NCBI GenBank assembly: GCA_963682025.1
Contig: OY821522.1
Coordinates: forward strand, 26,241,652 to 26,305,651
From: Cordilura impudica
Taxonomy: Eukaryota > Arthropoda > Insecta > Diptera > Scathophagidae
Length of the DNA: 64,000 bases
Reading direction: 5' to 3'
Part shown: one piece after another, positions 650-43,500 of the stretch
Position numbering within the stretch: position 1 is the stretch's first letter
How the letters are laid out: each line of letters begins with the position of its first letter
Notes under the pieces: model-generated
Seen by the model: only the letters and a program-made list of their open reading frames with translations
Told to the model about the DNA's origin: nothing
Database searches by the model: none
Program-made: the position numbers and the translations under genes

Positions 650-1320
650 AATTTTTAATTTTTAATTTTTAATTTTTAATTTTTAATTTTTAATTTTTAA
701 TTTTTAGTTTTGAATTTTTAATTTTGAATTTTTAATTTTTAATTTTTAATTTTTAATTTTTAATTTTTAATTTTTAATTTTTAATTTTTAATTTTTAATT
801 TTTAATTTTTAATTTTTAATTTTTAATTTTTAATTTTTAATTTTTAATTTTTAATTTTTAATTTAAATTTTTAATTTTTAATATTTAATTTTTAATTTTT
901 AATTTTTAATTTTTAATTTTTAATTTTTAATTTTTAATTTTTAATTTTTAATTTTTAATTTCTAATTTTTAATTTTTAATTTTTAATTTTTAATGTTTAA
1001 TGTTTAATTTTTAATTTTTAATTTTTAATTTTTAATTTTTAAATTTTAATTTTTAATTTTTAATTTTTAATTTTTAATTTTTAATTTTTAATTTTTAATT
1101 TTTAATTTTTAATTTTTAATTTTAATTTTTAATTTTTAATTTTTAATTTTTAATTTTTAATTTTTAATTTTTAATTTTTAATTTTTAATTTTTAATTTTT
1201 AATTTCTAATTTTTAATTTTAAATTTTAAATTTTAAATTTTAAATTTTTAATTTTTAATCTTTAATTTTTAATTTTCAATTTTTAATTTTAATTTTTAAT
1301 TTTTAAGCTTTAATTATTAA
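650..1320 (+). repeat. AATTTTT heptamer array inside the DINE-like element
   Basis: About 670 bp of nearly uninterrupted 7-bp AATTTTT units with scattered single-base variants (TTTCTAA, TTTAAATT, TTTGAATT). The T-rich strand is the plus strand. The array lies just inside the head hairpin. Confidence 0.95.
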
Positions 1321-2638
1321 TGTTTTATTTTTCGTTATTCATTGTTCATTTTTCATCTTTCATTAGTCATTGTTCAATCTTAATTTTTCATGTTCCATTT
1401 TTCAATTTTCATTTTACACTTTCCATATCCCATTTTTCATATTTCAGTTTCCATTTTCCATTTTAAATTTTTCATTTTTTAATAATCTTTCATTTTTTAA
1501 TTTTCTTTATTCATTTTCCACTTTCCATTTTTAATTTTTCAATTTTCATTTTCCATTTTTCATTTTTAATTTTATTTTTATAATTTCCATTTGCCATTTT
1601 TCATTTTTCTATTTTCATTTTCATTTTCCATTTTTCATTTATAAATTTTCATTTTCCATTTTTCATTTTTCAATTTTCATTTTCCATTTTTAATTTTTCA
1701 GTTTTCGTTTTCCATTTTTCATTTTCCGATTTTCATTTTTCAATTTTCATTGTCCATTTTCCATTTTTAATTTTTCAATTTTCATTTCCCATTTTTCATT
1801 TTTAATTTTTCAATTTCCATTTGCCCTTTTCATTTTTCAATTTCCATTTTTCATTTTTCCATTTCCATTTTTAATTTTTCATTTTCGATTTTTCAATTTT
1901 CATTTTCCATTTTTCCATTTCCATTTTCCATTTTGCGTTTTCCATTTTTCATTTTTAATTATTTAATATTAATTTTTCAATTTTCACTTTCCATTTTTCA
2001 TTTTCATTTTCCATTTTTCATTTTTAATTTTTCAATTTTCAATTTCCATTTTCTATTAGTCATTTTTCATTCTTCAATTTTCATTTTCCATTTTCCATTT
2101 TTCATTTTACAATTTTCATTTTCCATTTTTCGTTTTCGATTTCCATTTCCCTTTTTAAGTTTTCAATTTTCATTTTCCATTTTCCATTTTCCATTTTTCA
2201 TATTTCAGTTTTCGTTTCCATTTTCCACTTTCCATTTTTCATTTTTCAATTTTCATTTTCCATTTTTCAATTTTCATTTCTCATTTTTCAATTTTCATTT
2301 TCCAATTTCATTTTCCATTTTTCATTTTGCATTTTTCATTTTTCAATTTTTTTTTTCATTTTCCATTTTTCATTATTCATTTTCCATTCTCCATTTTTCA
2401 TATCCTATTTTACATTTTTCATTTTCCGTTTTCCGCTTTTCATTTTCCATTTTCCATTCTCAATTTTCTATTTTCCATTTTTCATTTTTCAATTTTCTTT
2501 TTTCATTTTCCATTTTTCATTTTCCATTTTCTATTCTCTATTTTTCATTTTCTATTTTACATTTTCCATTTTCCATTTTCCTTTTTTCATTTTCCATTTT
2601 TCATTTTTATTTTTCATTCTCCATTTTCATTTTCCATT
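1321..2638 (+). repeat. Degenerate CATTTTC / CATTTTTC simple-sequence array
   Basis: About 1.3 kb of 6-8 bp units of the CATTTTC, CATTTTTC and AATTTTC types. It follows the heptamer array in the same order as at 6530-7165 and 54160-55260. Long open frames in it (1933-2742) translate to Phe/Ser/His/Ile low complexity and are by-products of the repeat. Confidence 0.9.
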
Positions 2639-3289
2639 GGAAAATTTCCATTTCTCGTTTTCAGTTTTTCTTTCATATTGGCGAGTTTTTTTATTATAAC
2701 GTGATAACGATAAAAAAATATGTGGCAATACTACTAACATGAGCTATGTTCTGTGTTCTTGGTATTATTAATATTATATGCATATTATTTTTGTTGCATT
2801 TTTTTATGTTGTTGTACAATTATTATATTCAACCACTAAACTGTTACAACAAACACACTGGGTTTTATGTTTTTTTTAGAGATATCTACATATTTTTGCT
2901 CGTATCTAATCACAATGATGCCCAATGTAGCCCATTTTCAATACCAACCTGCTGGGAATTATGGCAAATGATATTTTTGTAACCTTATCCAGTTAGATGG
3001 CTTTTTTTGTGAACGAGCGTGATTTCAACAGACAGACGGACAGACGGACAGATGGGCATCGCTATATCGACTCGAGCTGTGATAAGGATCAAGAATATAT
3101 ATACTTTATGGGGTCGGAAATTAGTTTTTCGATGCTTTACAAACGGAATGACAAACCTATGTATGTATACCCTCTGCCACTGACGTGTGGATGGTATAAC
3201 AAGTAAGAGTGTTAAATTCGGCTGTGCCGAATTTTTTAATACCCTCATCCTGAGTCTTTAATTATTAATTTTTTATTTTTTTTTTAGAA

Positions 3290-3650
3290 TTTTTAATTTT
3301 TAATTTTTAATTTTTAATTTTTAATTTTTAATTTTTAATTATTAATTTTTAATTCTTAATTTTAATTTTTAATTTTTAATTTTAAATTTTAAATTTTTAA
3401 TTTTTAATTTTTAATTTTTAATTTTTAATTTTTAATTTTTAATTTTTAATTTTTAATTTTTAATTTTTAATTTTTAATTTTTAATTTTTAATTTTTAATT
3501 TTTAATTTTTAATTTTTAATTTTTAATTTTTAATTTTTAAGTTTTAAGTTTTAAGTTTTTATTTTTAATTTTTAATTATTAATTTTTAATTTTTAATTTC
3601 TAATTTTTAATTTCTAATTTTTAATTTTTAATTTTTAATTTTTAATTTTT
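3290..3650 (+). repeat. AATTTTT heptamer array
   Basis: Left arm of the heptamer array of the third tandem copy. The 475-bp satellite begins exactly where it stops. Confidence 0.9.
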
Positions 3651-6025
3651 AGTCATTTATTGTTCGGTTTAAGATCATGTATATATTTTTCTAATGAAAG
3701 AAAGATAATAATTTTTGTAATGTAAGAGAAATATTAGAAAAAAATTGAAGACAGCGCTAGATGGAGTAGCTACTTTCGAACAAAGCGACTTGTTCATCGT
3801 CAGCATCCTTCTGCCTATTACTTCAACTCATGCTTAATCAACTATTTAACTCAACATTTGAAAGAAAAGAACATGAGAAATGTTTTTTCTTTTTATATAC
3901 GAGAGTGTGTATGAGCAAGCTGAGCTTTTCTAATTTTTAGCTTTCTCTACATTAACATAGCCAGATCAATTACAAGTCTTGTAATATGAACAGCTCTTTG
4001 TTTTTGCCATTGTCCATTAGATGGAACTGTTATGGCATGTGAAATCTTAACAGATTACACAAATGCATTGTACCTCATGTGTTGTATGTTATTGTTATGT
4101 ATTGTTGATCTGTATTGGAATAATTAGTCATTTATTGTTCGGTTTAAGATCATGTATATATTTTTCTAATGAAAGAAAGATAATAATTTTTGTAATGTAA
4201 GAGAAATATTAGAAAAAAATTGAAGACAGCGCTAGATGGAGTAGCTACTTTCGAACAAAGCGACTTGTTCATCGTCAGCATCCTTCTGCCTATTACTTCA
4301 ACTCATGCTTAATCAACTATTTAACTCAACATTTGAAAGAAAAGAACATGAGAAATGTTTTTTCTTTTTATATACGAGAGTGTGTATGAACAAGCTGAGC
4401 TTTTCTAATTTTTAGCTTTCTCTACATTAACATAGCCAGATCAATTACAAGTCTTGTAATATGAACAGCTCTTTGTTTTTGCCATTGTCCATTAGATGGA
4501 ACTGTTATGGCATGTGAAATCTTAACAGATTACACAAATGCATTGTACCTCATGTGTTGTATGTTATTGTTATGTATTGTTGATCTGTATTGGAATAATT
4601 AGTCATTTATTGTTCGGTTTAAGATCATGTATATATTTTTCTAATGAAAGAAAGATAATAATTTTTGTAATGTAAGAGAAATATTAGAAAAAAATTGAAG
4701 ACAGCGCTAGATGGAGTAGCTACTTTCGAACAAAGCGACTTGTTCATCGTCAGCATCCTTCTGCCTATTACTTCAACTCATGCTTAATCAACTATTTAAC
4801 TCAACATTTGAAAGAAAAGAACATGAGAAATGTTTTTTCTTTTTATATACGAGAGTGTGTATGAACAAGCTGAGCTTTTCTAATTTTTAGCTTTCTCTAC
4901 ATTAACATAGCCAGATCAATTACAAGTCTTGTAATATGAACAGCTCTTTGTTTTTGCCATTGTCCATTAGATGGAACTGTTATGGCATGTGAAATCTTAA
5001 CAGATTACACAAAGGCATTGTACCTCATGTGTTGTATGTTATTGTTATGTATTGTTGATCTGTATTGGAATAATTAGTCATTTATTGTTCGGTTTAAGAT
5101 CATGTATATATTTTTCTAATGAAAGAAAGATAATAATTTTTGTAATGTAAGAGAAATATTAGAAAAAAATTTAAGACAGCGCTAGATGGAGTAGCTACTT
5201 TCGAACAAAGCGACTTGTTCATCGTCAGCATCCTTCTGCCTATTACTTCAACTCATGCTTAATCAACTATTTAACTCAACATTTGAAAGAAAAGAACATG
5301 AGAAATGTTTTTTCTTTTTATATACGAGAGTGTGTATGAACAAGCTGAGCTTTTCTAATTTTTAGCTTTCTCTACATTAACATAGCCAGATCAATTACAA
5401 GTCTTGTAATATGAACAGCTCTTTGTTTTTGCCATTGTCCATTAGATGGAACTGTTATGGCATGTGAAATCTTAACAGATTACACAAATGCATTGTACCT
5501 CATGTGTTGTATGTTATTGTTATGTATTGTTGATCTGTATTGGAATAATTAGTCATTTATTGTTCGGTTTAAGATCATGTATATATTTTTCTAATGAAAG
5601 AAAGATAATAATTTTTGTAATGTAAGAGAAATATTAGAAAAAAATTGAAGACAGCGCTAGATGGAGTAGCTACTTTCGAACAAAGCGACTTGTTCATCGT
5701 CAGCATCCTTCTGCCTTTTACTTCAACTCATGCTTAATCAACTATTTAACTCAACATTTGAAAGAAAAGAACATGAGAAATGTTTTTTCTTTTTATATAC
5801 GAGAGTGTGTATGAACAAGCTGAGCTTTTCTAATTTTTAGCTTTCTCTACATTAACATAGCCAGATCAATTACAAGTCTTGTAATATGAACAGCTCTTTG
5901 TTTTTGCCATTGTCCATTAGATGGAACTGTTATGGCATGTGAAATCTTAACAGATTACACAAATGCATTATACCTCATGTGTTGTATGTTATTGTTATGT
6001 ATTGTTGATCTGTATTGGAATAATT
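3651..6025 (+). repeat. Tandem satellite, five units of 475 bp
   Basis: Units begin with AGTCATTTATTGTTCGG at 3651, 4126, 4601, 5076 and 5551. A partial restart (AGTCATTTTTT) at 6026 merges into the heptamer array. Spacing is exactly 475 bp each time. I could find only isolated single-base differences between units (for example near 3914, 5014, 5171, 5717 and 5970). Each unit holds a TATATACGAGAG stretch and no long open frame. The array has heptamer sequence on both sides and is absent from the other element copies. I do not recognise the monomer. An array of LTR-like units cannot be excluded. Confidence 0.95.
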
Positions 6026-6520
6026 AGTCATTTTTTAATTTTTAATATTTAATTTTTAATTTTTAATTTTTAATTTTTAGTTTTTAATTTTTAATTTTTA
6101 ATTTTTAATTTTTAATTTTTAATTTTTAATTTTTAATTTTTAATTTTTAATTTTTAATTTTTAATTTTTAATTTTTAATTTTTAATTTTTAATTTTTAAT
6201 TTTTAGTTTTTAATTTTTAATTTTTAATTTTTAATTTTTAATCTATAATTTTTAATTTTTAATTTTTAATTTTTAATTTTTAATTTTTAATTTTTAATTT
6301 TTAATTTTTAATTTCTAATTTTTAATTTTTAATTTTTAATTTTTAATTTTTAATTTTTAATTTTTAATATTTAATTTTTAATTTTTAATTTTTAATTTTT
6401 AATTTTTAATTTCTAATTTTTAATTTTTAATTTTTAATTTTTAATTTTTAATTTTAATTTTAATTTTAATTTTAATTTTAATTTTTAATTTTTAATTTTT
6501 AATTTAAATTTTTAATTTTT
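6026..6520 (+). repeat. AATTTTT heptamer array
   Basis: Right arm of the heptamer array that flanks the 475-bp satellite. Near 6450-6480 the unit shortens to 6 bp (TTTTAA). Confidence 0.9.
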
Positions 6521-6529
6521 AAACTTTTA

Positions 6530-7165
6530 TTATCAATTTTTAATTTTTCGTTTTCATTATTCATTTTTCATCTTTCATTACTCATTTTTCAATCTTAATT
6601 TTTCATGTTCCATTTTTCAATTTTCATTTTACACTTTCCATATTCCATTTTTCATATATCAGCTTCCATTTTCCATTTTAAGTTTTTCCTTTTTTTAATT
6701 TTTCAACTTTCATTTTTAATTTTCGTTATTCATTTTCCACTTTCCATTTTTAATTTTTCAATTTTCATTTTCCATTTTTCATTTTTAAATTTTCATTTTC
6801 CATTTTTAATATTTTATTTTTCAATTCTCGTTTTCCATTTTTAATTTTTCAATTTCCATTTGCCATTTTTTATTTTTCGATTTTCATTTTCCATTTTTCA
6901 TTTTTCCATTCTCATTTTTCATTTTTCATTTTCCATTTTTTCAATTTTCATTTTCCATTTCCCATTTTTCATTTTTCCATTTCCATTTTCCATTTTGCGT
7001 TTTCCATTTTCCATTTTTCATTTTTAATTATTTAATATTCATTTTTCAATTTTCATTTTCCATTTTTCATTTTCATTTTCAATTTTTCATTTTTAATTTT
7101 TCAATTTTCTATTTCCATTTTCTATTAGTCATTTTTCAATTTTCATTTTCCATTTTTCATTTCCC
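6530..7165 (+). repeat. CATTTTC-type simple-sequence array
   Basis: Same composition and order as 1321-2638 but shorter. It ends at the junction with non-repetitive DNA near 7166. Confidence 0.9.
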
Positions 7166-12586: not shown

Positions 12587-12590
12587 CGCG
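12587..12590. other. Target-site duplication CGCG of errantivirus copy 1, left
   Basis: CGCG precedes the 5' LTR and recurs at 18973-18976 after the 3' LTR. Four-base duplications are normal for errantiviruses. Confidence 0.85.
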
Positions 12591-13117
12591 AGTTACGTAT
12601 GTACTTCCACATACCCAACAAAAGCACACATATATAGACAACGTCGAAGAAATAATCAAAAAATACATTAACAAAAATTCGAGCAAACGACACCTGTAAA
12701 TTCACACAACAAAAAAATAGGAATAAGTCATTGCCACAAAACAATGACGAAATGTTTGTTCAAGGCCTATGTGAATGTACAAGAGTCGTTGCTCTGATTG
12801 TGAAATGTTGGAATCATCAAATTGCGTTTTGCTATAGTTAAATGCAATTTTGTTGAAATATTTGACCAAAATAAATATTAAAATTTAAACTAAAGCAATG
12901 ATTGCCCAATAATGCTTTCTTTTTGAAATAAAGAAAAGAATTGTTGATTGCACAACAATGTTTTGTCGACTCATGAATATATGTATGAAAATAATCGAAT
13001 TCTGAAGTTTGGCATAAAATAAAGAAATATTTTTAAGTTAGTCTTAAGACCATCAATCATTAATTAAGTCACTAAATTTTTTAAAAAATTAAAGGAGTGA
13101 TATTTTGATTTTTAACT
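12591..13117 (+). repeat. 5' LTR of errantivirus copy 1 (527 bp)
   Basis: Begins AGTTACGTATG and ends TTTTTAACT, the AGTTA/TAACT-type ends of errantivirus LTRs. It matches 36212-36735, 42977-43500 and 18473-18972 with few differences. Confidence 0.92.
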
Positions 13118-13135
13118 GGCGCAGTCGGGTAAAAC
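13118..13135 (+). other. Primer-binding site, tRNA-Ser type
   Basis: GGCGCAGTCGGGTAAAAC directly follows the LTR, like the tRNA-Ser primer sites of the 17.6/297/ZAM branch of fly errantiviruses. The same site follows the 5' LTR of copy 2 at 36736. Confidence 0.8.
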
Positions 13136-13180
13136 CATATTCCAAATAAAATACTACGTACATTAAGGGACTTGTGTAGT

Positions 13181-13480
13181 GTTGAACAATATATTAAAGT
13201 ACAAAGAGTTAATTAAAGAACATAAATACATAGTGATGAACAAAAAAATTAAAGTACAAAAAATTAATTAAAGAACATAAATACATAGTGTTGAACAATA
13301 AATTAAATAATATAAAGTACTCAAAATAAATTAAAGAACATAAATACATAGTGTAGAACAATAAATTAAATATTATAAAGTACTCAAAATTAATTAAAGA
13401 CCATAAATACATAGTAGTGAACAATAAATTAAATCACAAAATTAATTAAAGAACATAAATACATTGTGTTGAAAGCTTAA
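13181..13480 (+). repeat. Tandem repeats in the errantivirus leader
   Basis: The phrase ACATAAATACATAGTG recurs near 13218, 13275, 13337, 13401 and 13454, each with ACAATAAATTAAA or similar. The period varies from about 54 to 64 bp. Copy 2 has only about two such units (36800-36905). A minus-strand open frame across them is a by-product. Confidence 0.8.
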
Positions 13481-13523
13481 AATAAAAAAGTTAAAAGACA
13501 GTGTAATATAAAATTAAAGAAAA

Positions 13524-16500
13524 CAAGTAAGAGTGTTAAATTCGGCTGTGCCGAATTTTTGATACCCTCCACCTCGGTTTGAGTATTGATAATAAATGTA
13601 AACAAAATATTGGAAAAATATGCATGCGTTTCCTATATGCATGCGTTTCCGGTTATATGACATAACTTCTCGTTTAATTTAGTTTTTGCTAATTAAATAA
13701 CTCGCCTTAACCTCCATTGCAAATGTAATGGTTGTGTAGGGTGGCTATATCCAATAAATCGTGCTAATTGGAGATGGCTGTATAGTTTCTTTTAACTGGC
13801 GAAATATTTTTTCATTGCGGCCATATAGGTCGGATGGTGTAACAAAATAATAACCAAAAAAAAGCTCTCTCAATTTTTTTTATTAAAATATTGCCATATT
13901 TGGAAAACATAGAGAATAAATTTATAATAATAAATAATTAAATTAGGGATGCCAAACGCAAAAAACCAAATGTCCCAAACATTTTAAATAAACTAATTTG
14001 TTATCTTTATTTTCTGAAAAACTTCAAATATTCATCCAAAAAAAAAATTGTGAAAAATAATATATGTATAAATAACATTCTCATCAAATTGCGATTATTT
14101 ATGTAACAATTTTTATGTTCGCAATTCTTAAATATTATTTGAGGTTTTCTAAAAATCACTGAATTTAAATAAATGTTTTCTGTAGTGCGAATTCAACGAT
14201 CCGACAGAATTTCAAAGATCCGACAATCGTAAAATATATCGACAGCTATTGTTGTTTGCACTGAGGATTAAGTGATTCACTAAATACACACATCTTAACG
14301 ACAGTCGATAAATCTATTTTTCTATTTATTTAAATTGTAAACGAGTGGCATCTCTGTTAAAATAAGCAAAAAACACAAAGAAGAATAGAAAAAACAAATT
14401 ACTTCGTGTTTGACAGGATGATTTTATGTTTATGTTTAATATCTCTATTTTTTTACTAATATTTCTGTTTATTTATTTGAAAATGAAATAATGAATTGAA
14501 TATGCTATTTAATTTTTTTATGTATATAAAAACGTTTTTTAATAGAAGCAAAATATTTTCACTATTTTATGATTTTTATTTATGTATGACGACATTTCAA
14601 CCTAAAAATTTAAGTTTTTATCGATTCAATAAACAACACAAAAATGGTTGTCGTTTACATAACAACAACAGCTAACTTTAACAATAGCGAATATCGTTTA
14701 AAAATTTTACTGATAATTTTGCTTTTCTTTTTTAACGATTCGACAATCGTTAAAAGAAGTTACTGAAAAGCTATTAATTTCTCCTGAATGCCAATATTTT
14801 TTTTTAATGTAAACATTTTTTAAATGTAAACATATGTGGTGTTTGTTTTGAAATTTCAATTTGTGTTTAACGAATAAAATTTATATGTATATTAAAGATG
14901 CAATTGATGTCTTCTAAATTTAAAATTATTATTTCCGACGTTTTGATATGATTTTCTGAAATTCAGTTAATATTTTCTAATTTATAATTGGAAATTTTAA
15001 TTCCAGTTTTTAGAATTGATATTTTCTTAAATTTGAATGGAAAATTTAAAAAGTGCAATTTTGTATTTATGTGAATAATAATGCTTAAGTAATTATAAAC
15101 AATTTTTAAAAATTAGATGTAATCGAAATCAGATATTTTATAGGTAAAGCAGAATAATAATTCTATATAACTATGTAGAACTTTTTTGAAAGCAAAAAAC
15201 TCATTGATAATTCGGTAACTCTATTTTGTAAAGACAACAAAAAGTTAATATGCCAAACTTATGTTCATATTTATAAAAGAATAATGAAAAAACGTATGAA
15301 ATAAAATACCAGCCCGTGTATACTCTTAACATTGTTATGTATAATATCTATTTGAAAATATTGACCTTCATGTTAAAATAGAAATAACTATTGCAAAGCT
15401 AATTAGAACAAAAATTGTGGCGCCATCTATTGTGGCATAGTCACGCTGAGCAAAATGAAGTGACACTCTGTTAATGCAAAAGAAATGTATTTTCCCCACA
15501 ACAAAATATTGCAGAATTTTATGTAAATAAAATAATATGCCGATTTATTTCCAACATGCAGTTATTATGGATATACATATATAGAATATATGTATATTAT
15601 TTGTATTATTTAATATGTGTATGTATGTATGTATATGTAAATATTACACACATAAAATACAACATCAAACGTTATTTTTGTGTTTTTCTCTTTTAATAAA
15701 TTAATACATAAAATTTTTTTTTGCTAAATTTACATTGTTTTCTTTTTATTAACAACTAGGTATTTTAGCATTATTTGCTTTAGATGCTGCTGAATTTTTA
15801 CTCCCTTTATATTAACTCGTAGTGTCTGCTTGTCGAAAAATTTTTGGATCGATTTGAACCCCTTTCCCGTGACCCAGTCGATCTGAAACTTTGCAGGCAG
15901 GCACGTGGCAATGACAGAAATGATCTAGTAAATTTTTTTAGTGATGCCAAAACAATGGAAACTTTTAAATTTTTCTACCAGAGTTGATAAAAAAATGTAC
16001 AAAGGGTTAGTTTTTATTATATTATTACCACAACGACCACAAAAACAACAAGTCCAGCTACGACAACAATATAACATTTAGAATAACAACAAGAACACTA
16101 TAGAAACATCATATTTTTCATTTTTTTTTTCAGAGATTTCCCTGGACCTGTTCCACCGATTTTAATGATTTTGGAAACAGAAATCTTCCCATGAATTTGG
16201 AGAATCATTCTCACTAAAAATGATCACCTTAGCTATCCTATTGAGGGCGTGATCGTGACAAGAACAACATAGAATATTATATTTTTTCAAGACTTTTTTT
16301 AGTTCTTCATTTAAATCTCGGGCCCTAATCGACCGATTTGGACGATTTTAAATAGCAAACTTTTCAGGATGTTAGTGAATCATTTTTTATGTCAGCGAGA
16401 ACCCTAGCTGCCCGATTGATGCCGCCATCGTGATTTCCACAAACGGACAGACGGGCAGATGGACAGACGGACATTGCTATATCAACTCCGGTTGTTATAA

Positions 16501-16609
16501 GGATCACAAATATATATATTTTATGGGGTCCAAATTTTTTTTTCTAATTATTACGAACGGAATGACAAACTTATATATACCCTCTGCACACTGGAGTGGA
16601 GGGTATAAA
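13524..16609 (+). mobile_element. DINE-like element inserted directly before the gag start (3086 bp)
   Basis: Copy 2 of the same errantivirus reads AAAGAAAATGAGCAGATTC without interruption (36953-36971), giving the unoccupied site. The insertion starts CAAGTAAGAGTG with head hairpin AAATTCGGC/TGT/GCCGAATTT and ends with hairpin TATACCCTC (16576-16584) / GAGGGTATA (16599-16607) plus AA. No target duplication is seen. Its tail has the GACAGACGG run (16445-16475) and the TATGGGGTCC phrase. The 2.7 kb interior is AT-rich and noncoding, with no transposase. It has no heptamer arrays, unlike the copies at the start of the window. Confidence 0.85.
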
Positions 16610-18590
16610 TGAGCAGATTCGACCAAAATAGAAATTTACCAGAAGAATCGGCCAATGAAGGACAAATGGCAGAGGTTATTAGGGCACAAGAAGATGCCAT
16701 TAACCAATTGAAAAGCCAACTACATGTTTTTCAACAACAGCATCAAGTGTTTTTGCTGGCACCCAAAGATGTCCTAACTCAATTCAGACAGCTAAAAGTT
16801 CTGGATGGCGACCATGATGTTCATGCTTTTATAGCCTCGGTGGAAGCCGTAATAGCACTATGTCCACAAGGCAATCTTCAGCTCATGAATCTAGCATTGG
16901 CGATCGTAACAATCGTAAAAATTGTTGGTGCAGTTGGGAGCTACATTAGGGAGCTAGGAACCGGCGCAACATGGAACCAAATAAAAGCTGGACTAGTAGA
17001 ATACTACAGACCGAAAACGACGTATAGTGACGTCTTCAATGAATGCAGAGATGTAAAAATTATATTGTGGATAATAATGGCTATAATGGCATTTACACCA
17101 ATTCGAGCTAATATAACGATTTACCCAATAATGGAGACAAACGGTTACGTGGAAATTATTAGCGGAAATTTTAATATTCCAATGGAATCCGATTTAATTT
17201 TGCATCAAATAGATATAGAGGAAATAAAAAATGTATTGTTATCAATGAAGAGCAATATAAGCACTTTTAGTAAAAATGAACAACATTTTATGAATAACAA
17301 AGTAGAAACATTATTAAGCAAGCTGAAGACAGTAACACCTAATGGCAGACAGAAACGAGGACTAATAAACTTGGTAGGTCATGCATATAAATATCTTTTT
17401 GGTACGATGGATAATAGGGACCAGTAAGATATCACTAATCATTTTAACACAATTGACACAAACATGCATAATTCTATAACTGGGCTAAATCAACAGATAA
17501 AAATTAATGATCATTTTAATAGAACAACACAATTAATAAAAGACACTATAACACAAAACCAAAAACAGATACTATACCACATGGAAGGAATTCATAAAAC
17601 AGTTAGAAACATATTAACAGGGAACATATATCTTGAAAGATTACTTATTTTGACAACAATTAAAAACTATATAGAACACATACAAAGCTATATTACAACA
17701 GCACAAAATAGGATTAGCGATGCAAGTATTTTAACAAAACAAAAAATAGATGATTACGAACTTGATATAAGAAAAATTCAATATTTAAGAACAGCAATCC
17801 TCGAAAAAAACTAATGAATTTATTTTTGTAATTAAGGTTCCAAAAACATTTAAAATTATAGAAATAATGACTATTATACCCGTACCATATTTTAATAAGG
17901 AAATAGAAGCTGAAATTGAAAATATATTCCATTACAATAATAATACATATACATATATGAAAGATAAATATATTAATGAATGTAAACTATCAAATCTTTG
18001 TACACAAGAAAAAACATGTAAACTGGTTACAAATTATAATACCGAAATCATAAATATTAATGACCAAACAATTGTGGTCAAGAATGCAGAGAATGAGTCT
18101 ATTACAAGTAATTATAATAACACAGAAAATGTTCTAAATGGAAATATTTTAGTACACTACAATAACTGCTCATTAAAAATAGGAAACCAAAAATTTTCAG
18201 ATAAAAACAATATATATTTAGATAAAATAATCGTTCCAAAATTTCAAAATGTAACATTTAATACAACACTTACAATGGAGGAAGTGAAACTAACGACAAT
18301 ACAAAATTTAAAAGAAATAGAAGAAATAAAATATAATAATAAAATTTATAACCTATAGCGTACCACCTTTTATATTAGCAACAGTAGTAATAATATTAAT
18401 AATAATATTGCATGATAGACGCAAAATGTCAAATGGAAGAATTCGGGAGGATCCTTCATCTAATGGGGGAGGAGTTACGTATGTACTTCCACATACCCAA
18501 CAAAACCCCACAAATATAGACAACGTCGAAGAAATAATCAAAAAATACATTAACAAAAATTCGAGCCAACGACACCTGTAAATTCACACA
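16609..18590 (+). pseudogene. Gag N-terminus joined to Env by splicing, with later breaks
   Basis: The frame opens MSRFDQNRN at 16609. About 150 Gag residues (16609-17058; Gln-rich segment, then a conserved capsid-like block) run in frame into Env at 17059. Env starts with a hydrophobic segment resembling a signal peptide (about 17060-17110). A furin-type site RQKR followed by GLINLVG lies near 17350-17375, as in fly errantivirus Env. A nonsense change at 17425 (GAA in copy 2, TAA here) ends the first frame. A frame break near 17800 and a one-base insertion near 18350 follow. A transmembrane stretch lies at about 18355-18410 and the C-terminus runs into the 3' LTR. A functional protein is not encoded. 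Confidence 0.85.
18465..18472 (+). other. Polypurine tract of copy 1
   Basis: GGGGGAGG immediately upstream of the 3' LTR, the usual plus-strand priming site. The same tract is at 42969-42976 in copy 2. Confidence 0.85.
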
Positions 18591-18972
18591 ACAAAAAAAT
18601 AGGAATAAGTCATTGCCACAAAACAATGACGAAATGGTTTGTTCAAGGCCTATGTGAATGTACAAGAGTCGTTGCTCTGATTGTGAAATGGAATCATCAA
18701 ATTGCGTTTTGCTATAGTTAAATGCAATTTTGTTGAAATATTAAACCAACATAAATATTAAAATTTAAACTAAAGCATTGATTGCCCAATAATGCTTTAT
18801 TTTTAAAATAAAGAAAAGAATTGTTGATCGCACAATAATGTTTTGTCGACTCAATTCTGAAGTTTGGCATAAAATAAACAAATATTTTTAAGTTAGTCTT
18901 AAGACCATCAATCATTAATAAAGTCACTAAATTTTTAAAAAAATTAAAGGAGTGATATTTTGATTTTTAACT
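18473..18972 (+). repeat. 3' LTR of errantivirus copy 1 (500 bp)
   Basis: Same ends as the 5' LTR, but shorter. A deletion of about 25 bp near 18850 removes the ATGAATATATG segment present in the other three LTRs, and there are a few substitutions. The divergence from the 5' LTR shows the insertion is not brand new. Confidence 0.92.
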
Positions 18973-20028
18973 CGCGCGATTTGAAGTACTGTTTTGGGCA
19001 AAGTTTGTGCGATAGCATGGAACATAAAAAATATTATGGTGACGAAGTACTCTACGTGGAACATACAATTTTATTTGCAATAACAAATCTGGACAGTCGA
19101 TACCACCAGTAACTATATCAAAGACAAATAGTGCATCTTGAAATCTATGATGATATTCTAATGTTTCGAGACCTAATAATAAACCTTTTGATCTACATAT
19201 AAGAGGGAATAGGATCAACAAACTAGAATGATGAAAGTACGTACTTGAGGGAAATACGCTGCACTCTCTCAATACGAGAGATGTATATTCCACAATGTGG
19301 GCTCCAAACAGCAGCAGCATATTCTAACTTTGATCTGACGTATATAACAGTCTAAACGTACATGGATCATAAAAGTCAGAACAGCTCTTTCTTATAACCG
19401 CAAGTATGACATAAGCTCTTGGAACAATATAATTAATATGTGGAATGAAAGACATTGTTGAGTCAAAAACAACACCTAGATCAATTGTTGAGTCTGCCGT
19501 TTTCAATTTATAATATCCAATTTTGAAGACCGATTGAATTGGGTTTCTAGATCTGGTGAAGGAGATATGAAGGCATTTATCCCGATTTAACTGAATGTTA
19601 TTGAATAAACACCATTTGTGCAGGTTGTCCAAATCATTTTAAAGGCTTAATACATCATTAATGGAATTTATTTTATTATATATTTTTAAGTCATCAGCAT
19701 ATAACAAATAATTTACATTAGAATAACAACTTGATACATCATTTATGAAAAAAAAAAAAAAAACAGCGGACTTAAGATGCTACCTGGAGGGACGCCTGAT
19801 ACTCGTCATATGGCGAAGATTCATAACCTTCAACGCCTACTCTACACATTATATTTGATAGATATGACTTTATCCAGATTAAGAAATTTGAATGGAAACC
19901 CATCCCTTGCAACTTAGAATAGAGAATATCTAAGGATACCTTATCAAAAGCCTTAGAGAAATCAGTATAAATGACCTCAACTTTTTGCCTAATTCTAAAG
20001 CTGATAAACAATACTCACTAAAAACTGT
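18973..20028 (-). pseudogene. Reverse transcriptase C-terminal part of the jockey-like LINE
   Basis: Minus-strand pieces show the RT motif VIYTDFSKAFDKV (about 19960), PPGSILSP (about 19780) and YADDLKIYNKI (about 19700), then the thumb region LHKWCLFNNIQLNRDKC (about 19600), with frames changing at 19770 and 19320. The protein ends YRTNFAQNSTSNR next to the errantivirus, and the last residues lie across the insertion at 12590, matching the HRTNYGxNEP-type end of jockey proteins. A run of 15 A at about 19749 disrupts the frame. The role would be target-primed reverse transcription. Confidence 0.8.
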
Positions 20029-21617: not shown

Positions 21618-21817
21618 NNNNNNNNNNNNNNNNNNNNNNNNNNNNNNNNNNNNNNNNNNNNNNNNNNNNNNNNNNNNNNNNNNNNNNNNNNNNNNNNNNN
21701 NNNNNNNNNNNNNNNNNNNNNNNNNNNNNNNNNNNNNNNNNNNNNNNNNNNNNNNNNNNNNNNNNNNNNNNNNNNNNNNNNNNNNNNNNNNNNNNNNNNN
21801 NNNNNNNNNNNNNNNNN
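21618..21817. other. Assembly gap, 200 N
   Basis: A run of exactly 200 N, the usual fixed-size placeholder, so the true distance is unknown. It falls in the leader of the gypsy-type element. Confidence 0.99.
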
Positions 21818-29981: not shown

Positions 29982-30209
29982 GCAATTTAAAATAAAAAAA
30001 ACATGCCATAAAATTATCTAACAAAAATTTAAATCATATTTAACCATAATAGAATACTATGAGATACAAAAATATGTTTAGAAAAAAAAAACATTGCAAA
30101 ATAATAATTAAGCAGTGATTATTTTAAAAGAAATGATATAGTAATTAATTGACTATAGAAATATGTATGTAGGTATAGAAAATAAGCGCAAGCCAAATTT
30201 GAGTGGCAT
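29982..30209. other. A-rich noncoding DNA
   Basis: Poly(A)-rich, with no feature recognised. Confidence 0.5.
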
Positions 30210-30665
30210 TGTTATAATTTTGTTGCCTTCGGTAGGAAAAAGTTCATATCGGATGCTATATTTATATGGGGACTAGGTCGAAACAAGGACCAACCCGGAC
30301 CATATCTAGTTAGGTCACTTTTTTTTTTGCAAAAAACATATTCGAACCAAATTTAAGAAAAATCTGTGCAATATTTTTGTTTTTTAGATAGATTTAAGTG
30401 AAGATCGGGAATCAGCTTCATATGGAAGTTATGTCTAAAAATTGTCCTATAGGGTTTATTTTTCGACTACTGATAAATGGATGTAATAAACGCAGACAAC
30501 CCAATTTGGCGGAGATCTACATAATAATTTGAACATTAAGGCAATTTAAACCGATTCCATAGGGGTCATTTGTATGGGGACTAGGTTTGAACATGTACCG
30601 ATTTTCACCAATTTCAATAGCGTCCGTTCATAGTTACAAACTCAAGTTTGATTACAAGACTTACA
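30210..30665 (+). mobile_element. DINE-like fragment of the GGTCTAGACC subfamily
   Basis: From GGAAAAAGTTCATATCGGATGC (30235) to AGTTTGATTACAAGA this follows the complete 705-bp element at 41366-42070. Head hairpin and GACG-rich tail are absent. The AGTGAAGATCGGGAA and GGGTTTATTTTTCGACTACT blocks are shared with 31371-31888. Confidence 0.65.
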
Positions 30666-36211: not shown

Positions 36212-36735
36212 AGTTACGTATGTACTTCCACATACCCAACAAAACCCCACAAATATAGACAACGTCGAAGAAATAATCAAAAAATTCATTAAAAAAAATT
36301 CGAGCCAACGACAGCTGTAAATTCACATAAAAAAAATAGGAATATGTCATTGCCACAAAACAATGACGAAATGTTTGTTCAATGCCTATGTGCATGTACA
36401 AGAGTCGTTGCTCTGATTGTGAAATGTTGGCATCATCAAATTGCGTTTTGCAATAGTAAAATGCAATTTTGTTGAAATATTAAACCAACATATAAATCAA
36501 AATTTAAACTAAAGCATTGATTGCCCAATAATGCTTTCTTTTTAAAATAAAGAAAGGAATTGTTGATTGCACAATAATGTTTTGTCGACTCATGAATATA
36601 TGTATGAAAATAATCGAATTCTGAAGTTTGGCATAAAACAAAGAAATATTTTTAAGTTAGTCTTAAGACCATCAATCATTAATAAAGTTACTAAATTTTT
36701 AAAAAATTAAAGGAGTGATATTTCGATTTTTAACT
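36212..36735 (+). repeat. 5' LTR of errantivirus copy 2 (524 bp)
   Basis: AGTTACGTATG to TTTTTAACT, followed by the primer site GGCGCAGTCGGGTAAAAC (36736-36753). Confidence 0.93.
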
Positions 36736-36959: not shown

Positions 36960-38047
36960 ATGAGCAGATTCGACCAAAATAGAAATTTACCAGAAGAATC
37001 GGCCAATGAAAGACAAATGGCAGAGGTTATTAGGGCACAAGAAGATGTCATTAACCAATTGAGAAGCCAACTACAAGTTTTTCAACAACAGCTTCAAGAG
37101 TTTTTGCTGGCACCCAAGGATGTGCTAACTCAATTCAGACAGCTAAAAGTTCTGGATGGCGACCATGATGTTCATGCTTTTATAGCCTCGGTGGAAGCCG
37201 TAATAGCACTATGTCCACAAGGCAATCTTCAGCTCATGAATCTAGCATTGGCGATCGTAACAAACGAAAAAATTGTTGGTGCTGTTGGGAGCTACATTAG
37301 GGAGCTAGGAACCGGCGCAACATGGAACCAAATAAAAGCTGGACTAGTAGAATACTACAGACCGAAAACAACGTATAGTGACGTCTTCAATGAATGCAGA
37401 GATGTAAAAGTAAGCAATTTAAGAGTTATTTGCTTATTTTGAAAAAGCAAAATATAAAATAAATCAAATTTATTTGTTTGATGAGAATAAACCTAGCATT
37501 TATAAGTCAGATAGAGTTGACAAAGATTTATCCAATATATTGATAGAGAAAATTGATATACCATTAAGGACACATTTAGATCAGATCAGTACACTTAATA
37601 CTAATGCAACGAGATATTCTCAAATTAAAGCACTAGATGACCCATAGAGCAACAAATACTAAAAGATACAACCAAAATAACACAGTACCAAACACTAATA
37701 GATACAACCAAAATAACACAATAGACAATACTAATAGATACAACCAAAATAACACAGTACCAAACACTAGTAGATACAACCAAAATAACACAATACCAAA
37801 TACTAATAGATACCACCAAAATAACATAACACCAAACATTAACAGATACAGACAAAATAGCACAGCCATACAAAATCACTTAAATACTAACGATTCAGGC
37901 CAAACTAGAATTACCCGTATGAGCGTAGATACCCGTAACTCCAGATGGACACCTGAACCTATGAAGATAGGAAATGTTGAAGAACAATATGAAGAATGCG
38001 ATGAGGTAAATTTTTCAAGGCAGCCTCTAAGAACAGATTACCCATAA
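36960..38047 (+). pseudogene. Gag of errantivirus copy 2
   Basis: Starts ATGAGCAGATTC at 36960. The first 150 codons match copy 1, then the splice donor GTAAGC lies at 37410. The reading frame stops at 37440 and resumes after frame changes near 37450 and 37630. The C-terminal part (37637-38047) carries about five 12-residue repeats of the NRYNQNNTVPNT type, then MKIGNVEEQYEECDEV. No CCHC knuckle is seen, as is usual for errantivirus Gag. Pol begins in another frame at the Gag end. Confidence 0.8.
37660..37860 (+). repeat. 36-bp tandem repeats in the gag C-terminus
   Basis: About five and a half units of AATAGATACAACCAAAATAA(CACAGTACCAAACACT) type, each coding the 12-residue NRYNQNNTxxNT. Minus-strand open frames through them are by-products. 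Confidence 0.85.
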
Positions 38048-40898
38048 TAGTAGTAACAATAGGGAATATAAATATAAGGTGTCTAATTGACACTGGTTCA
38101 GATACTAGCATTAAGATTCAAAAAAAGCAAAAGGATATCAGAAGAGGAGATTGTAAAGACCCCAAATATATAGAATATTGACAGGCTTAAATAAAATGGA
38201 GAATGAAGTAGTTACACCTATTCCGAAACAATTCAAAGCAAGAGGAACATTAACTTGGAAGACTACGAATGTCAGGAGTGAGAAGTATGATGCCATAATG
38301 GGTCAGAATTTTTTAATCCCTTTCAGAGCACAGATAGATTTATCAAATGGACATTTAGATATATTTGGTAATAGAATATTTTTCGCAGATACATCTTCTC
38401 CGTATGTATATGACGAAGTATGCAATTTAGAGGGACTGGATGGATCTAATATGGAAAATTTTAATTTCTCACATTTGAATAATGAAGAGGCGAATAGTAT
38501 CGAGATGTTATTGAGAGAATTTGTTGATCTTTTCTAGAAAGAAGGGAACAATTTGTCTGCAACAAATGAAATATGTCATGAGGTTATAATGACAATTGAT
38601 AAACCATTATATTCGAAAATTTATAACTACCCTCAAATTCATGAACAGGAAATTCAGAGGCAGATAAAAGATATGCTTGAAAATAATATAATAAGGGAAA
38701 AAGTAATTTTCCATATAATAGACCTCTCTGGATAGTGCCGAAGAAAATTGATAATTCAGGAAAACAGAAATGGAAACTTGTTGTCGACTATAGGAAATTG
38801 AATGAGCATACAGTAGACGACAAGTACCCTATACCTAATTTTTCAAATACATTTAGCAAATTGGGAAATGCACAGTTTTTCAGCAGTATAGATTTGGCTA
38901 AAGGGTTTCATCAGATCTTGGTTAGGGAAGAAGGCAAAAAACGACGTTTTCGACACCCCAAGGTCACTATGAATTTATTCGAATGCCTTTCGGCTTAAAA
39001 AGTGGTCCCTCAACATTTCAGAGGCTAATGAATACTGTCCTCAGACAGTTTATTAACAAAATCTGTGTTGTCTATATGGATGATATTTTGGTTTTTAGTA
39101 CATCCTTGAAGGAACACATAATCAATTTAACACAAATATTCAAAGCATTAAGAAAAGCCAGATTAAAGATCCATGTGGATAAATGCGATTTTTTGAAAAA
39201 TCGGACCGGAGTGGGCATTAAACCATTAAACCAAACTCGAGCAACTTTAAACATATACAAGATTTAAAATTTGCCGAAAACGGTAAAACAGATAAAATCA
39301 TTTTTGGGCATGACAGGGTTTTATCGCAAGTTTATTAAGGATTATGCGAAAATTGCATTTCACATGACAAAGTATTTGAGAAAAGGCGAGAAAATTAATT
39401 CAAATGATCCTAGTTATATTTTCGCATTCGAAAAACTTAAGGATATAGTGACCAAACCCCCCAATATTGAGATATCCAATTTATGAGAAAAAATTTAAGA
39501 TAATAACTGATGCTAGTAATTTTTCTATAGGTGCCGTTCTAACACAAGAAAGCCATCCAATTGCATATGCTTCGAGAACATTAAATGAACATGAAAGAAA
39601 CTATGCAGCAATCGAAAAAGAATTGTTAGCAATTGTTTGGGGAGTAAAATATTTTAGACCATACATATATGGACGAAATTTTGATCTTGAAAGTGATCAC
39701 CAACCACTTAAGTGGTTAATGGCAAAATATTCGGGAAGGGATATCAGTCCCCGACTTCAAAGATGGCTGGTCGAGCTTGAAGAATACAGTTTCAAAATTG
39801 ACTACATAAACGGCAAAGATAATTATATAGCCGATTTTCTCAGTATCGTTGACGTTGAAAATAAGGAAATAAATGTTGCAGATTCTGTTAACCCAGATGA
39901 TAACGACCCTATTATAACCACGGAAAGGCTCAATGGTTCTCGTGAATCGCTGGATGTGCAAACATGCCATTCGCAAGAGGAAGACTTGAATAACTATTTT
40001 TCGATTTTGGACACGGTTGTAAGTAGGTGTAGAACCCAAATTATTATTGTGGAGAATAGATTCGGAAACACAAACAGTTTTCGGAAATAATAGAATCTTC
40101 ATTGATAAGTCAGACATTCAAAATGATAATGTGGAGGAAATAATCAAAAGAAATGTAGTAAAAGGAAAAATAGGAATATACCCAGAAATTAACGACCATT
40201 ATTATAATAAAGTTCATGAAAAATTGATTGAAATGTTTCCGATTACAACAAATGTCAAATTTGTCAGATGCTCTTGGTTTGCAACAGACATAGAAGATGA
40301 GGAAGACTTAAAAAAGCAGATTTCTAATTTCCATAAAATTGAATCAGGCCATTCAGGAATTACTTCTACATTCGAAGACCTGAAAAACAGACTATATAAT
40401 CCAAAACTAAAGACAATTATACATTCTATAATAAACAACTGTCAGATATGCTCATCAGCAAAATATGACAGAAAACCGATTAAACCAACCTTTTGTATAA
40501 CGGAAACACCGGACAATATTAACGAAAGAGTACATGTCGATACATATACTAATAGTAAAAATTCGTTTGTTATTTTCATTGATAAGTTTTCCAAACATTC
40601 CATTTATTTTCACCTACCAGATAGGAACAGGGTAAAGTGTACCCCAATGGCGGCTCAATATGCAAAATTAGATCGGGAGTTGATACGGAAAAGATTATGG
40701 GAAGCTAAGGAAAAGGTAATAAGGAAACGGAACGAGAATAGGGAAAATTATATAGAAACTAGACAGGAGGGTTTTATAAAAAACTATAAGAATTTACGTC
40801 ATAAAGAAGAACCCAACTTTAGAGAAAAATGCTTAGAAGGAGTACATACTAGTAATATTAAAAGACCAAATAAATTTAACAATCCTTTAACAAACTGA
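38048..40898 (+). pseudogene. Pol of errantivirus copy 2: protease, RT, RNase H, part of integrase
   Basis: Protease LIDTGSDTSI (about 38085). After a stop at 38535 comes [22 protein letters not shown] (38728-38785), [13 protein letters not shown] (about 38890), [12 protein letters not shown] (38983) and VVYMDDILVFS (about 39068). RNase H: FKIITDASNFSIGAVLTQES (about 39495) and YAAIEKELLAIVW. The integrase zinc site is present (HSGITST and CQICSSAKYD, 40345-40460). After VHVDTY and FVIFIDKFSKHSIYF the core is cut and jumps to C-terminal sequence (RELIRKRLWEAKEKV), so most of the catalytic core is missing. At least six frame changes or deletions. Confidence 0.88.
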
Positions 40899-40931
40899 AA
40901 TTAACAATTGCCCCTAAATCCAAAATTACAG

Positions 40932-43081
40932 ATTATATTGCGGATAAAAATGGCTATAATGGCATTTACACCAATTCGAGCTAATATAACGATTTACCCA
41001 ATAATGGAGACAAACGGTTACGTGGAAATTATTAGCGGCAATTGTAACATTCCAATGGAATCCAATTTAATTTTGCATCAAATAGATATACAGGAAATAA
41101 AAAATGTACTGTTATCAATGAAGAGCAATATAAGCACTTTTAGTAAAAATGAACAACATTTTATGAATAACGAAGTAGAAATATTTTTAAGCAATATCTT
41201 TTTGGTACGAGGGATAATACGGACCAGGAAGATATCACTAATCATTTTAACACAATTGACACAAACATGCATAATTCTATAACAGGGCTAAATCAACAGA
41301 TAAAAATTAATGATCATTTTAATAGAACAATACAATTAATAAAAGACACTATAACACAAAACCAACAAGTAAGAAAATTATGGTCGGTCTAGACCGACTA
41401 TACGATACCCTATACCATGCAGATATGAAAAAGTTCATATCGGATGCTATATCCATAAAGGGACTAGGTCCAAAAATGGACCGATCCTGATCATGTTTGG
41501 TAATATCTCTTGTATTTTGCAAAAATATGTACAAACAAAATTTGAGAAGAATCAGTGCAATATTTTTGTTTTTTAATAGATTTAAGTGAAGATCGGGAAG
41601 CAGCTCTATATGGGGTCAAAGGGATCATTTTTGGTATACTCATTAGTGGATGTAATGAATGCATACAAACCCAATTTGATTAAGATCTATATGACACTTT
41701 GGATCTTATGGCAATTTATGTCGATTTCATATGGGTAATTTGTATGGGGGCTAGGTCTGAACATGGACCGATTCTCACCAATTTCAATAGCGTTCATCCC
41801 ATGGCCGATAAAAGCTTACATACCAAATTTCATCAAAATATATTTATATTTGCGACCTGCAGTTTGATTACAAGCTTTACATGGACACACAGACGGATGG
41901 ACGGACGGACGAACGGACGGACGGACGGACGGACATTGTTAAATCAACTCAGAAAGTGATTCTGATTCGATCGGTATAATTAAAGATGGGTCTAGGTCAA
42001 ATATTTTTGGTTGTTACAAACAGCAGCACAAAGTCATTATACCCAAACCACATAGTGGTATAGGGTATAAAAACAGGTACTATACCACATGGAAGGAATT
42101 CATAAAACAGTTAGAAACATATTAACACGGAACACATATCTTGAAAGATTACTTATTTTGACAACAATTAAAAACTATAAAGAACACATACAAAGCTATA
42201 TTACAACAGCACGAGATAGGATTAGCGATGCAAGTATTTTAACAAAACAAGAAATAGATGATTACGAAGTTGATACAAGAAAAATTCAATATTTAAGAAC
42301 ATCAATCCTCGCAAAAAATAATGAATTAATTTTTGTAATTAAGGTTCCAAAAACATTTAAAATTATACAAATAATGACTTATACCCGTATAATATTTTAA
42401 TAAGGATATAGAAGCTGAAATTGATAATATGTTCCATTACAATAATAATACATATACATATATGAAAGATAAATATATTAATGAATGTAAACTATCAAAT
42501 CTTTGTACACAAGAAAAAACATGTAAACTGGTTACAAATCATAATAGCGAAATCATAAATATTAATGACCAAATAATTGTGGTCAAGAATGCAGAGAATG
42601 AGTCTATTACAAGTAATTATAATAACACAGAAAATGTTTTAAATGGAAATATTTTAGTACACTACAATAATTGCTCATTAAAAATAACAAACCAAAAATT
42701 TTCAAATACAAATAAAATATATTTAGATGAAATAATCGTTCCAAAATTTCAAAATGTAACATTTAATACAACACATACAATGGAGGAAGTGTAACTAACG
42801 ACAATACAAAATTTAAAAGAAATAGAAGAAATAAAATATAATAATAAAATTATAACCTATAGTGTACCACCTCTTATATTAGCAACAATAGTAATAATAT
42901 TAATAATAATATTGCATGATAGATGCAAAATGTCAAATGGAAGAATTCGGGAGAATCCTTCATCTAATGGGGGAGGAGTTACGTATGTACTTCCACATAC
43001 CCAACAAAACCCCACATATATAGACAACGTTAAAGAAATAATCAAAAAATACATTAACAAAAATTCGAGCCACCGACACCT
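40932..43081 (+). pseudogene. Env of errantivirus copy 2, split by a DINE-like element
   Basis: Begins after the splice acceptor with the hydrophobic signal-like segment (MAIMAFTPIRA, 40950). A deletion of about 70-80 nt near 41190, relative to copy 1, removes the furin-type cleavage site and the start of the fusion region. The 705-bp insertion follows at 41366. Beyond it the frame continues (42089-42400, 42429-42794) with Asn-rich ectodomain sequence and Cys residues (CKLSNLCTQEKTCK), breaks at a stop (42792), then a transmembrane stretch (about 42860-42920) and a C-terminus overlapping the 3' LTR to 43083. It cannot make a functional envelope protein. Confidence 0.85.
41366..42070 (+). mobile_element. 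Complete DINE-like element of the GGTCTAGACC subfamily (705 bp) in env
   Basis: Copy 1 reads CACAAAACCAAAAACAGATA without interruption at 17551-17570, giving the unoccupied site. The insert starts CAAGTAAGAAAATT with hairpin GTCGGTCTAGACCGAC (41383-41398) and ends GGTATAA, with TATACC/GGTATA pairing near the ends. A (GACG)n run lies at 41889-41935. No target duplication beyond the A-run. It has the same termini as the TTCGGC subfamily. Confidence 0.88.
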
Positions 43082-43500
43082 GTAAATTCACATAAAAAAA
43101 TTGGAATAAGTCATTGCCACAAAACAATGACGAAATGTTTATTCAAGGCCTATGTGAATGTAAAAGAGTCGTTGCTCTGATTGTGAAATGTTGGAATCAT
43201 CAAATTGCGTTTTGCTATAGTTAAATGCAATTTTGTTGAAATATTAAACCAACATAAATATTAAAATTTAAACTAAAGCATTGATTGCCCAATAATGCTT
43301 TCTTCTTAAAATAAAGAAAAGAATTGTTGATTGCACAATAATGTTTTGTCGACTCATGAATATATGTATGAAAATAATCGAATTCTGAAGTTTGGCATAA
43401 AACAAGGAAATATTTTTAAGTTAGTCTTAAGACCATCAATCATTAATAAAGTCACTAAATTTTTTAAAAAATTAAGGAAGTGATATTTTGATTTTTAACT
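42977..43500 (+). repeat. 3' LTR of errantivirus copy 2 (524 bp)
   Basis: Matches 36212-36735 with few differences and is followed by the CGTG duplication. Confidence 0.93.

What the first reader, a model, noticed from the sequence alone, without database searches (positions are those of the whole stretch)
12591..18972. Provirus-like copy of a spliced env RNA
Two copies of one errantivirus lie in this window. Copy 1 lacks exactly 37410-40931 of copy 2, which starts GTAAGC and ends TTACAG; the join at 17058/17059 has no gained or lost base. Copy 1 still has both LTRs, the tRNA-Ser-type primer site, the polypurine tract and a CGCG target duplication. A chance deletion would not be expected to fall on both splice sites. 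The subgenomic env RNA of this family must therefore have been packaged, reverse-transcribed and integrated, giving an LTR-bounded, env-only element that would move with helper proteins.
Basis: partly seen in the sequence, partly recalled or inferred. Interest (0 to 1): 0.92.

Follow-up and report, generated by a model that had tools for sequence, protein, structure and literature searches.

The report
Integrated copies of spliced retrovirus RNA
An insect genome carries several separately inserted copies of a retrovirus's spliced envelope message, with complete retroviral ends in the two best preserved ones, which shows that a shortened viral messenger RNA was copied back into the germline by retroviral machinery.

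Summary
Copy 1 (12591-18972) lacks exactly 37410-40931 of copy 2, a GTAAGC...TTACAG segment holding the rest of gag and pol; no bases are shared at the join. It has two LTRs, primer site, purine tract and a CGCG duplication; copy 2 has its own CGTG duplication.

The host genome (1.49 Gb) decides it. The 26-base junction occurs at five places (control 0), the donor pattern at 30. One of the five is a segmental duplicate of copy 1, leaving four loci; one other (C1) is complete, with both LTRs and its own CGCG duplication. Of 40 scored matches, 35 cover one exon and stop at the splice point (34 to the base); none shows an imprecise loss of the intron.

Best explanation: spliced env RNA was packaged, reverse-transcribed with pol supplied in trans, and integrated. 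Precedents are murine leukaemia virus SDARE and foamy virus deltaTas; the literature listings I saw held no insect case. Later movement as an env element is unproven; weak phylogenetic evidence favours more than one copying event.

The parts
12587..12590 (.). CGCG target duplication, left copy
   Evidence: same four bases at 18973-18976
12591..13117 (+). 5' LTR of copy 1 (S1)
   Evidence: matches 18473-18972; K2P 0.031 over 499 aligned bases
13117..13128 (+). primer-binding-site-like TGGCGCAGTCGG, overlapping the last LTR base (tRNA-Ser type label recalled)
   Evidence: read from sequence; shared with copy 2
13129..13523 (+). leader with five degenerate ~60-nt repeat units
13524..16606 (+). 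foreign insertion (INS1) in copy 1, begins CAAGTAAGA, ends at or just after GGGTAT; absent from copy 2
   Evidence: further copies in the stretches around S3 and S4
16609..17058 (+). first 150 codons of gag = upstream exon of the spliced env RNA
   Evidence: 58% identical over 160 columns to long-form Gag P0001
17058..17059 (+). splice junction (donor/acceptor point)
17059..18578 (+). env exon (F-type envelope, frame broken further on; its end runs into the 3' LTR)
   Evidence: PF12259 3.8e-07 (over cut-off) and PF07253 6.5e-05 (under cut-off) in the frame 16609-17424; ORFs
18465..18472 (+). polypurine tract GGGGGAGG next to 3' LTR
18473..18972 (+). 3' LTR of copy 1
18973..18976 (.). CGCG target duplication, right copy
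36212..36735 (+). 5' LTR of copy 2 (long form); CGTG duplication at 36208-36211
36960..37409 (+). gag start up to the splice donor, long form
37410..40931 (+). retroviral intron GTAAGC...TTACAG: rest of gag and pol (RT, RNase H, integrase pieces)
   Evidence: Pfam RVT_1, RT_RNaseH, Integrase_H2C2
40932..42976 (+). env region of copy 2, interrupted at 41369-42069 by another insertion
42977..43500 (+). 3' LTR of copy 2; CGTG duplication at 43501-43504

Best explanation
The genome of an insect errantivirus related to the 17.6/297/idefix type was spliced from a donor 150 codons into gag to an acceptor just before env, giving its env messenger RNA. That RNA keeps the 5' R-U5, primer site, leader, start of gag, env, purine tract and 3' U3-R, so it still carried what reverse transcription needs. 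It was packaged into particles made by full-length copies, reverse-transcribed from the tRNA primer into LTR-bounded cDNA, and integrated by an integrase that chooses CGYG-type sites. The window's copy 1 (S1) is one such insertion, since duplicated once on the same chromosome (S5); one other complete insertion (S4 on C1) and two rearranged copies (S2, S3 on C2) exist. Shown: the exact junction at four non-duplicate loci, LTR pairs and target duplications at S1 and S4, absence of pol. Inferred: the RNA, its packaging, the helper.
For: (1) Exact GT-AG removal with no base shared across the break points. (2) The 26-nt junction at 5 genome places, 3 of them letter-perfect, control 0; 30 donor-pattern places, control 0. 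(3) Of 40 scored matches among 119 candidates, 5 span the junction, 18 end at the last exon-1 base, 1 ends one base earlier, 16 start at the first exon-2 base. (4) S4: LTR to LTR with CGCG on both sides; neither flank of S1 matches the S4 stretches. (5) S5 shares both flanks and the site of S1, so it is the same insertion duplicated. (6) Gag relatives P0001 and P0002 from outside data run through the donor point as ordinary Gag...VKVSNLR..., so the segment is coding sequence lost from S1, not gained by copy 2. (7) Env spliced from within gag is reported for the idefix subclade (PMC12992720, passages). (8) LTR divergence: S1 0.031, S5 0.048, S4 0.014, against 0.018-0.054 for copy 2 and seven long-form pairs (paired by position, four of them on partial LTRs, two near-identical duplicates), so helpers were active in the same period. 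(9) S2's left end is the first base of the primer site, where minus-strand cDNA normally ends, joined through a shared TGGC to another Ty3/gypsy RT; its right end is an LTR end followed by CGCG.
Against: No RNA evidence is available. S2 and S3 are rearranged and no 5' LTR is attached to them, so only S1 and S4 have fully checked retroviral ends. All five could in principle descend from one spliced founder. S4's primer site is damaged, so in its present state it is not a normal template. One of 15 fetched long-form acceptors has lost AG, as have 2 of the 32 genome matches with at most one mismatch to the acceptor pattern, not checked for family membership.
Confidence: 0.93

Rival explanations
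1. A single spliced env RNA was copied once, and the resulting gag(N)-env provirus then spread by itself as a non-autonomous element using proteins of full-length copies; S1, S2, S3 and S4 are its descendants. (It shares the first step with the best explanation.)
For: Junction identical in all five. S1, S3, S4 and S5 carry allele A at exon-2 site 107. S1 and S4 both have five leader units, as do 6 of 13 measured long forms fetched.
Against: Holding the five spliced copies as one clade is rejected, weakly, in both exons (AU p 0.0168 for exon 1 with 20 of 26 rows, 0.0169 for exon 2 with 20 of 21 rows). S2 carries allele C, found in copy 2 and 10 of 15 long forms, and three leader units. No change private to the spliced copies unites them in the sites tabulated, except S1 with S5, which are one insertion. 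Recombination between co-packaged RNAs could blur all this.
Confidence: 0.25
2. A chance deletion, or a template jump during reverse transcription, removed pol and happened to end at GT and AG.
For: Large internal deletions are common in LTR elements (general knowledge).
Against: No shared bases at the join; same join at four non-duplicate loci; no imprecise removal of the intron among 40 scored matches.
Confidence: 0.01
3. The env messenger RNA was retroposed by a LINE-type element, as reported for HERV-K rec.
For: Such a route is documented for HERV-K(HML-2) rec mRNA (PMC4351823, passages).
Against: S1 and S4 have complete LTRs at both ends and 4-bp CGCG duplications, of the type seen at long forms; a retroposed mRNA would start in R, end in poly(A) and have longer duplications.
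Confidence: 0.02
4. Gene conversion copied the spliced junction from one locus onto other long-form copies already in place.
For: Would explain one junction on different backgrounds.
Against: Needs an original spliced provirus anyway, and removal of 3.5 kb by conversion at loci on C1, C2 and C6.
Confidence: 0.04

Closest known systems
Murine leukaemia virus SDARE (SD'-associated retroelement)
   Same: Spliced RNA from a donor inside gag is packaged, reverse-transcribed and integrated as a provirus (PMC10496198, passages including the abstract).
   Different: SD' is an alternative donor joined to an acceptor in pol and giving P50/P60, described from infected cells; here the product is a gag(N)-env join, in the germline DNA of an insect and old enough to be duplicated and broken.
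Foamy virus deltaTas provirus (pregenome splicing)
   Same: DNA copy of a viral RNA with a splice removed; defective genome (PMC3814592, passages).
   Different: Removes about 200 bp; here 3.5 kb with all of pol.
Idefix-subclade errantiviruses of Drosophila
   Same: Env exon spliced from within gag, F-type Env (PMC12992720, passages).
   Different: The five passages seen describe the RNA; none mentions integrated spliced copies. Subclade membership of this element was not tested by phylogeny.
HERV-K(HML-2) rec retroposed loci
   Same: Genomic copies of a spliced retroviral mRNA with exact splice joins (PMC4351823, passages).
   Different: Attributed there to L1: poly(A), L1-type duplications, 5' truncation; no LTR-pathway integration.
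BARE1 of barley
   Same: LTR element with a spliced subgenomic RNA (PMC3735527, 12 of 29 passages).

Membership tests
Errantivirus (insect endogenous retrovirus, Ty3/gypsy) | F-type/gypsy Env as third reading frame | tested here: met
   PF12259 3.8e-07 (over cut-off) and PF07253 6.5e-05 (under its cut-off) in 16609-17424; other env pieces gave no env family; relative P0003 carries both domains
Errantivirus (insect endogenous retrovirus, Ty3/gypsy) | Ty3/gypsy-type pol with RT, RNase H, integrase | tested here: met
   RVT_1, RT_RNaseH, Integrase_H2C2 in copy 2 pieces; of 120 listed relatives (807 found) two bear the names transposon 297 and 17.6
Errantivirus (insect endogenous retrovirus, Ty3/gypsy) | LTRs AGTT...AACT, 4-bp target duplication, TGGCGCAGTCGG primer site | tested here: met
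   copies 1 and 2; that these motifs are typical of the family is recalled
Idefix subclade | env spliced from a donor within gag | tested here: met
   donor 150 codons into gag, inferred from DNA copies; definition from PMC12992720
Idefix subclade | Pol phylogeny inside the subclade | not tested
   no reference Pol set was at hand
SDARE-type provirus (reverse-transcribed spliced retroviral RNA) | exact splice junction in integrated DNA | tested here: met
SDARE-type provirus (reverse-transcribed spliced retroviral RNA) | two complete LTRs and integrase-type duplication | tested here: met
   S1 and S4; not met or lost in S2 and S3
SDARE-type provirus (reverse-transcribed spliced retroviral RNA) | spliced RNA found in particles | not testable with these tools
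   no RNA data
LINE-retroposed mRNA | poly(A), start within R, long target duplication, no LTR pair | tested here: not met
   S1 and S4 ends

The most novel reading that the evidence does not exclude
The normal env messenger of this errantivirus is itself a regularly packaged genome: because what is needed for packaging lies upstream of a donor inside gag, each burst sheds LTR-bounded gag(N)-env satellites into the germline, which can supply Env (with a Gag-derived leader) from their own promoter while pol comes from elsewhere.
Probability: 0.2. Interest if true: 0.82.

Novelty: new variant of a known kind. Interest (0 to 1): 0.6.

Why it matters
It gives genomic evidence for a splice that otherwise needs RNA data, places the signals sufficient for packaging, priming and integration of this errantivirus within the LTRs, leader, first 450 nt of gag and the env region, and shows that an insect endogenous retrovirus can seed the germline with pol-less envelope copies. 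The ratio found here, four non-duplicate spliced loci to 30 donor-bearing places, makes leakage of spliced RNA into the replication cycle measurable in genomes. The fixed splice junction is a ready search key for other species and families.

Tried and rejected
Exon-1 and exon-2 trees were tried to find the parents of the spliced copies: star-like, few shared changes, one starred branch in exon 1 and none in exon 2. Rows dropped: L020, L021, L023, L027, L028, L035 from the exon-1 tree (fragmentary or divergent), L051 from the exon-2 tree. Of the 30 donor places one is copy 2 in the window, 20 were fetched and nine were not. The shared ins2 insertion in copy 2 and S4 was considered as a lineage marker and dropped: the two are 4.1% apart, while copy 2's is 1.9% from the one in the S5 stretch, so separate insertions at one site are likelier. 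The genome-wide acceptor pattern is too weak for counting (481 matches against 105 in the control at up to 3 mismatches; 32 listed at up to 1). Whether other errantivirus families in this genome have spliced copies was started with PF07253 (90 scored of 4165 candidates), but no loci were given, so it stays open. Rfam found nothing at its gathering scores in the window. Chance deletion, LINE retroposition and intron gain in copy 2 were rejected for the reasons given. The LTR 3.5 kb upstream of S2 is followed by CGCG, not by a primer site, and is not taken as S2's own.

Papers: eight searches of the open-licence PMC library listed no report of integrated spliced env copies in insects; the listings were capped (12-20 titles asked for of up to 1,001 found) and subscription journals are mostly missing there.

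Full report
What is there. The window lies at C6:26241652-26305651 of a 1.486-Gb assembly of 855 contigs, 29% GC, probably a fly, perhaps a calyptrate (inference from six chromosome-sized contigs, and from insect-type retroelements; no name is given). It holds two insertions of one LTR retroelement. Copy 1 spans 12591-18972, copy 2 spans 36212-43500. Each has its own 4-bp duplication, CGCG and CGTG, so they are separate integrations.

The junction. Copy 1's 16607-17058 matches copy 2's 36958-37409 and 17059 onward matches 40932 onward, without gaps near the join. What copy 1 lacks, 37410-40931 (3522 bases), begins GTAAGC and ends TTACAG, and the flanking bases offer no alternative placement. 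That stretch encodes the rest of gag and pol: RVT_1, RT_RNaseH and Integrase_H2C2 matches. Gag relatives P0001 and P0002 from outside data run through the donor point as plain coding sequence, so the donor sits inside gag. In copy 1 the first 150 gag codons continue in frame into env (frame 16609-17424, 272 codons). The distance from gag start to junction is 450 nt in S1 and S3; S5 has lost 147 nt of it, a multiple of three; S2 and S4 have lost 32 and 38 nt net (the start points set for S2 and S5 were two bases late, so its phases for those two are not used).

Genome test. A 501-base query over the junction gave 40 scored matches of 119 candidates: 5 span the junction, 19 cover exon 1 only (18 end at its last base, 1 a base earlier), 16 cover exon 2 only and all start at its first base. 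A 26-nt junction pattern with up to three mismatches finds 5 places, control 0; a 25-nt donor pattern finds 30 places, all with GT, control 0. Of 15 fetched long-form acceptors 14 have AG. Alignment of the five spliced copies shows the same join in each; S3 has a 6-base addition just after it and S4 two substitutions.

Are they separate insertions? S5 on C6 shares the 5' flank (about 5 kb in pieces of 91-96% identity) and the 3' flank (491 columns, 94%) of S1, with the LTR at the same place: one insertion, later duplicated. S4 on C1 (237645772-237650576) has both LTRs and CGCG on both sides, and neither flank of S1 matches its surroundings. S2 on C2 has no 5' LTR attached: its left end is the first base of the primer site, joined through the shared letters TGGC to the RT region of a different, abundant Ty3/gypsy element, whose uninterrupted form was read at four other loci; it is split by another retroelement, then continues through env, with an internal loss, to an LTR end followed by CGCG. 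The primer-site end is where minus-strand DNA normally stops, which fits a misdirected strand transfer, but it is one case, and a DNA-level join is not excluded. S3 on C2 is cut in the leader and in env and sits among other retroelement remains. So there are four non-duplicate loci, of which two are fully checked as LTR-type integrations.

Time. LTR-LTR distances (K2P): S1 0.031, S5 0.048, S4 0.014, copy 2 0.0515, seven long-form pairs 0.018-0.054 (paired by position; four on partial LTRs of 123-391 bases; L018/L046 and L019/L045 are near-identical duplicates). The spliced copies therefore entered while the family was active, S4 late.

One event or several? Trees are nearly stars. A single clade of all five spliced copies is rejected at p 0.0168 (exon 1) and 0.0169 (exon 2), and a clade of the four without S2 at 0.0358 in exon 2. 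S2 has the exon-2 site-107 allele of copy 2 and 10 of 15 long forms, the others that of 5 of 15. This points to more than one splicing-and-copying event, but the signal is small, S2 and S5 are short, and recombination could mimic it.

Mechanism. The spliced RNA keeps every cis element that the LTR pathway uses (two R regions, primer site, purine tract, LTR ends) and about 0.7-0.9 kb of leader and gag start, where packaging signals of retroviruses commonly lie (general knowledge; passages of PMC5086612 say that signals upstream of the donor can bring spliced RNA into particles). It lacks pol, so RT and integrase came in trans. The in-frame gag(N)-env product is a further inference. Whether env-only copies were mobilised again from DNA is not shown.

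Comparison. MLV SDARE (PMC10496198) and foamy deltaTas (PMC3814592) are the same kind of event in vertebrate retroviruses. HERV-K rec loci (PMC4351823) are copies of spliced RNA attributed to L1, unlike these. [quoted passage not shown] of all these papers I saw passages only. None of the eight literature searches listed integrated spliced env copies in insects. I file it as a new variant of a known kind: env-type, germline, insect.

Noticed in passing
window 13524-16606, 41369-42069, 30174-30623, 31385-31888: Two families of insertions that begin CAAGTAAGA, end at GGGTATA(A), carry ATACCC/GGGTAT inverted repeats near the ends and sit in A-runs without a clear target duplication (ends read for the first two); Helentron-like by recall only.
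   Followed up: partly
window 41369 and G000:C1:237648381: The same insertion family occupies the identical env position in copy 2 and in S4, yet the two insertions are 4.1% apart, suggesting an insertion hotspot.
   Followed up: partly
G000:C2:137988473 (L009): Primer site of a spliced copy fused by a 4-base overlap to RT of an unrelated, abundant Ty3/gypsy element (1156 first-look candidates), a possible reverse-transcription chimera.
   Followed up: partly
window 36736-36959, 13129-13523 and long-form loci: Leader carries 2 to 5 degenerate ~60-nt repeats, varying in number between copies (13 of 20 fetched long forms measured).
   Followed up: partly
window 1-7162 and 51006-55300: Large satellite-like tandem arrays related to each other, with an inverted stretch at 55805-56700; gaps of N at 21618-21817 and 50806-51005.
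   Followed up: no
G000:C1:224892947-224894350: Errantivirus env match lying in a 1500-aa open frame, unlike the roughly 400-520-aa frames of the other listed matches.
   Followed up: no
window 18330-18578: The env reading frame runs through the polypurine tract into the 3' LTR; relative P0003 has matching C-terminal residues.
   Followed up: partly
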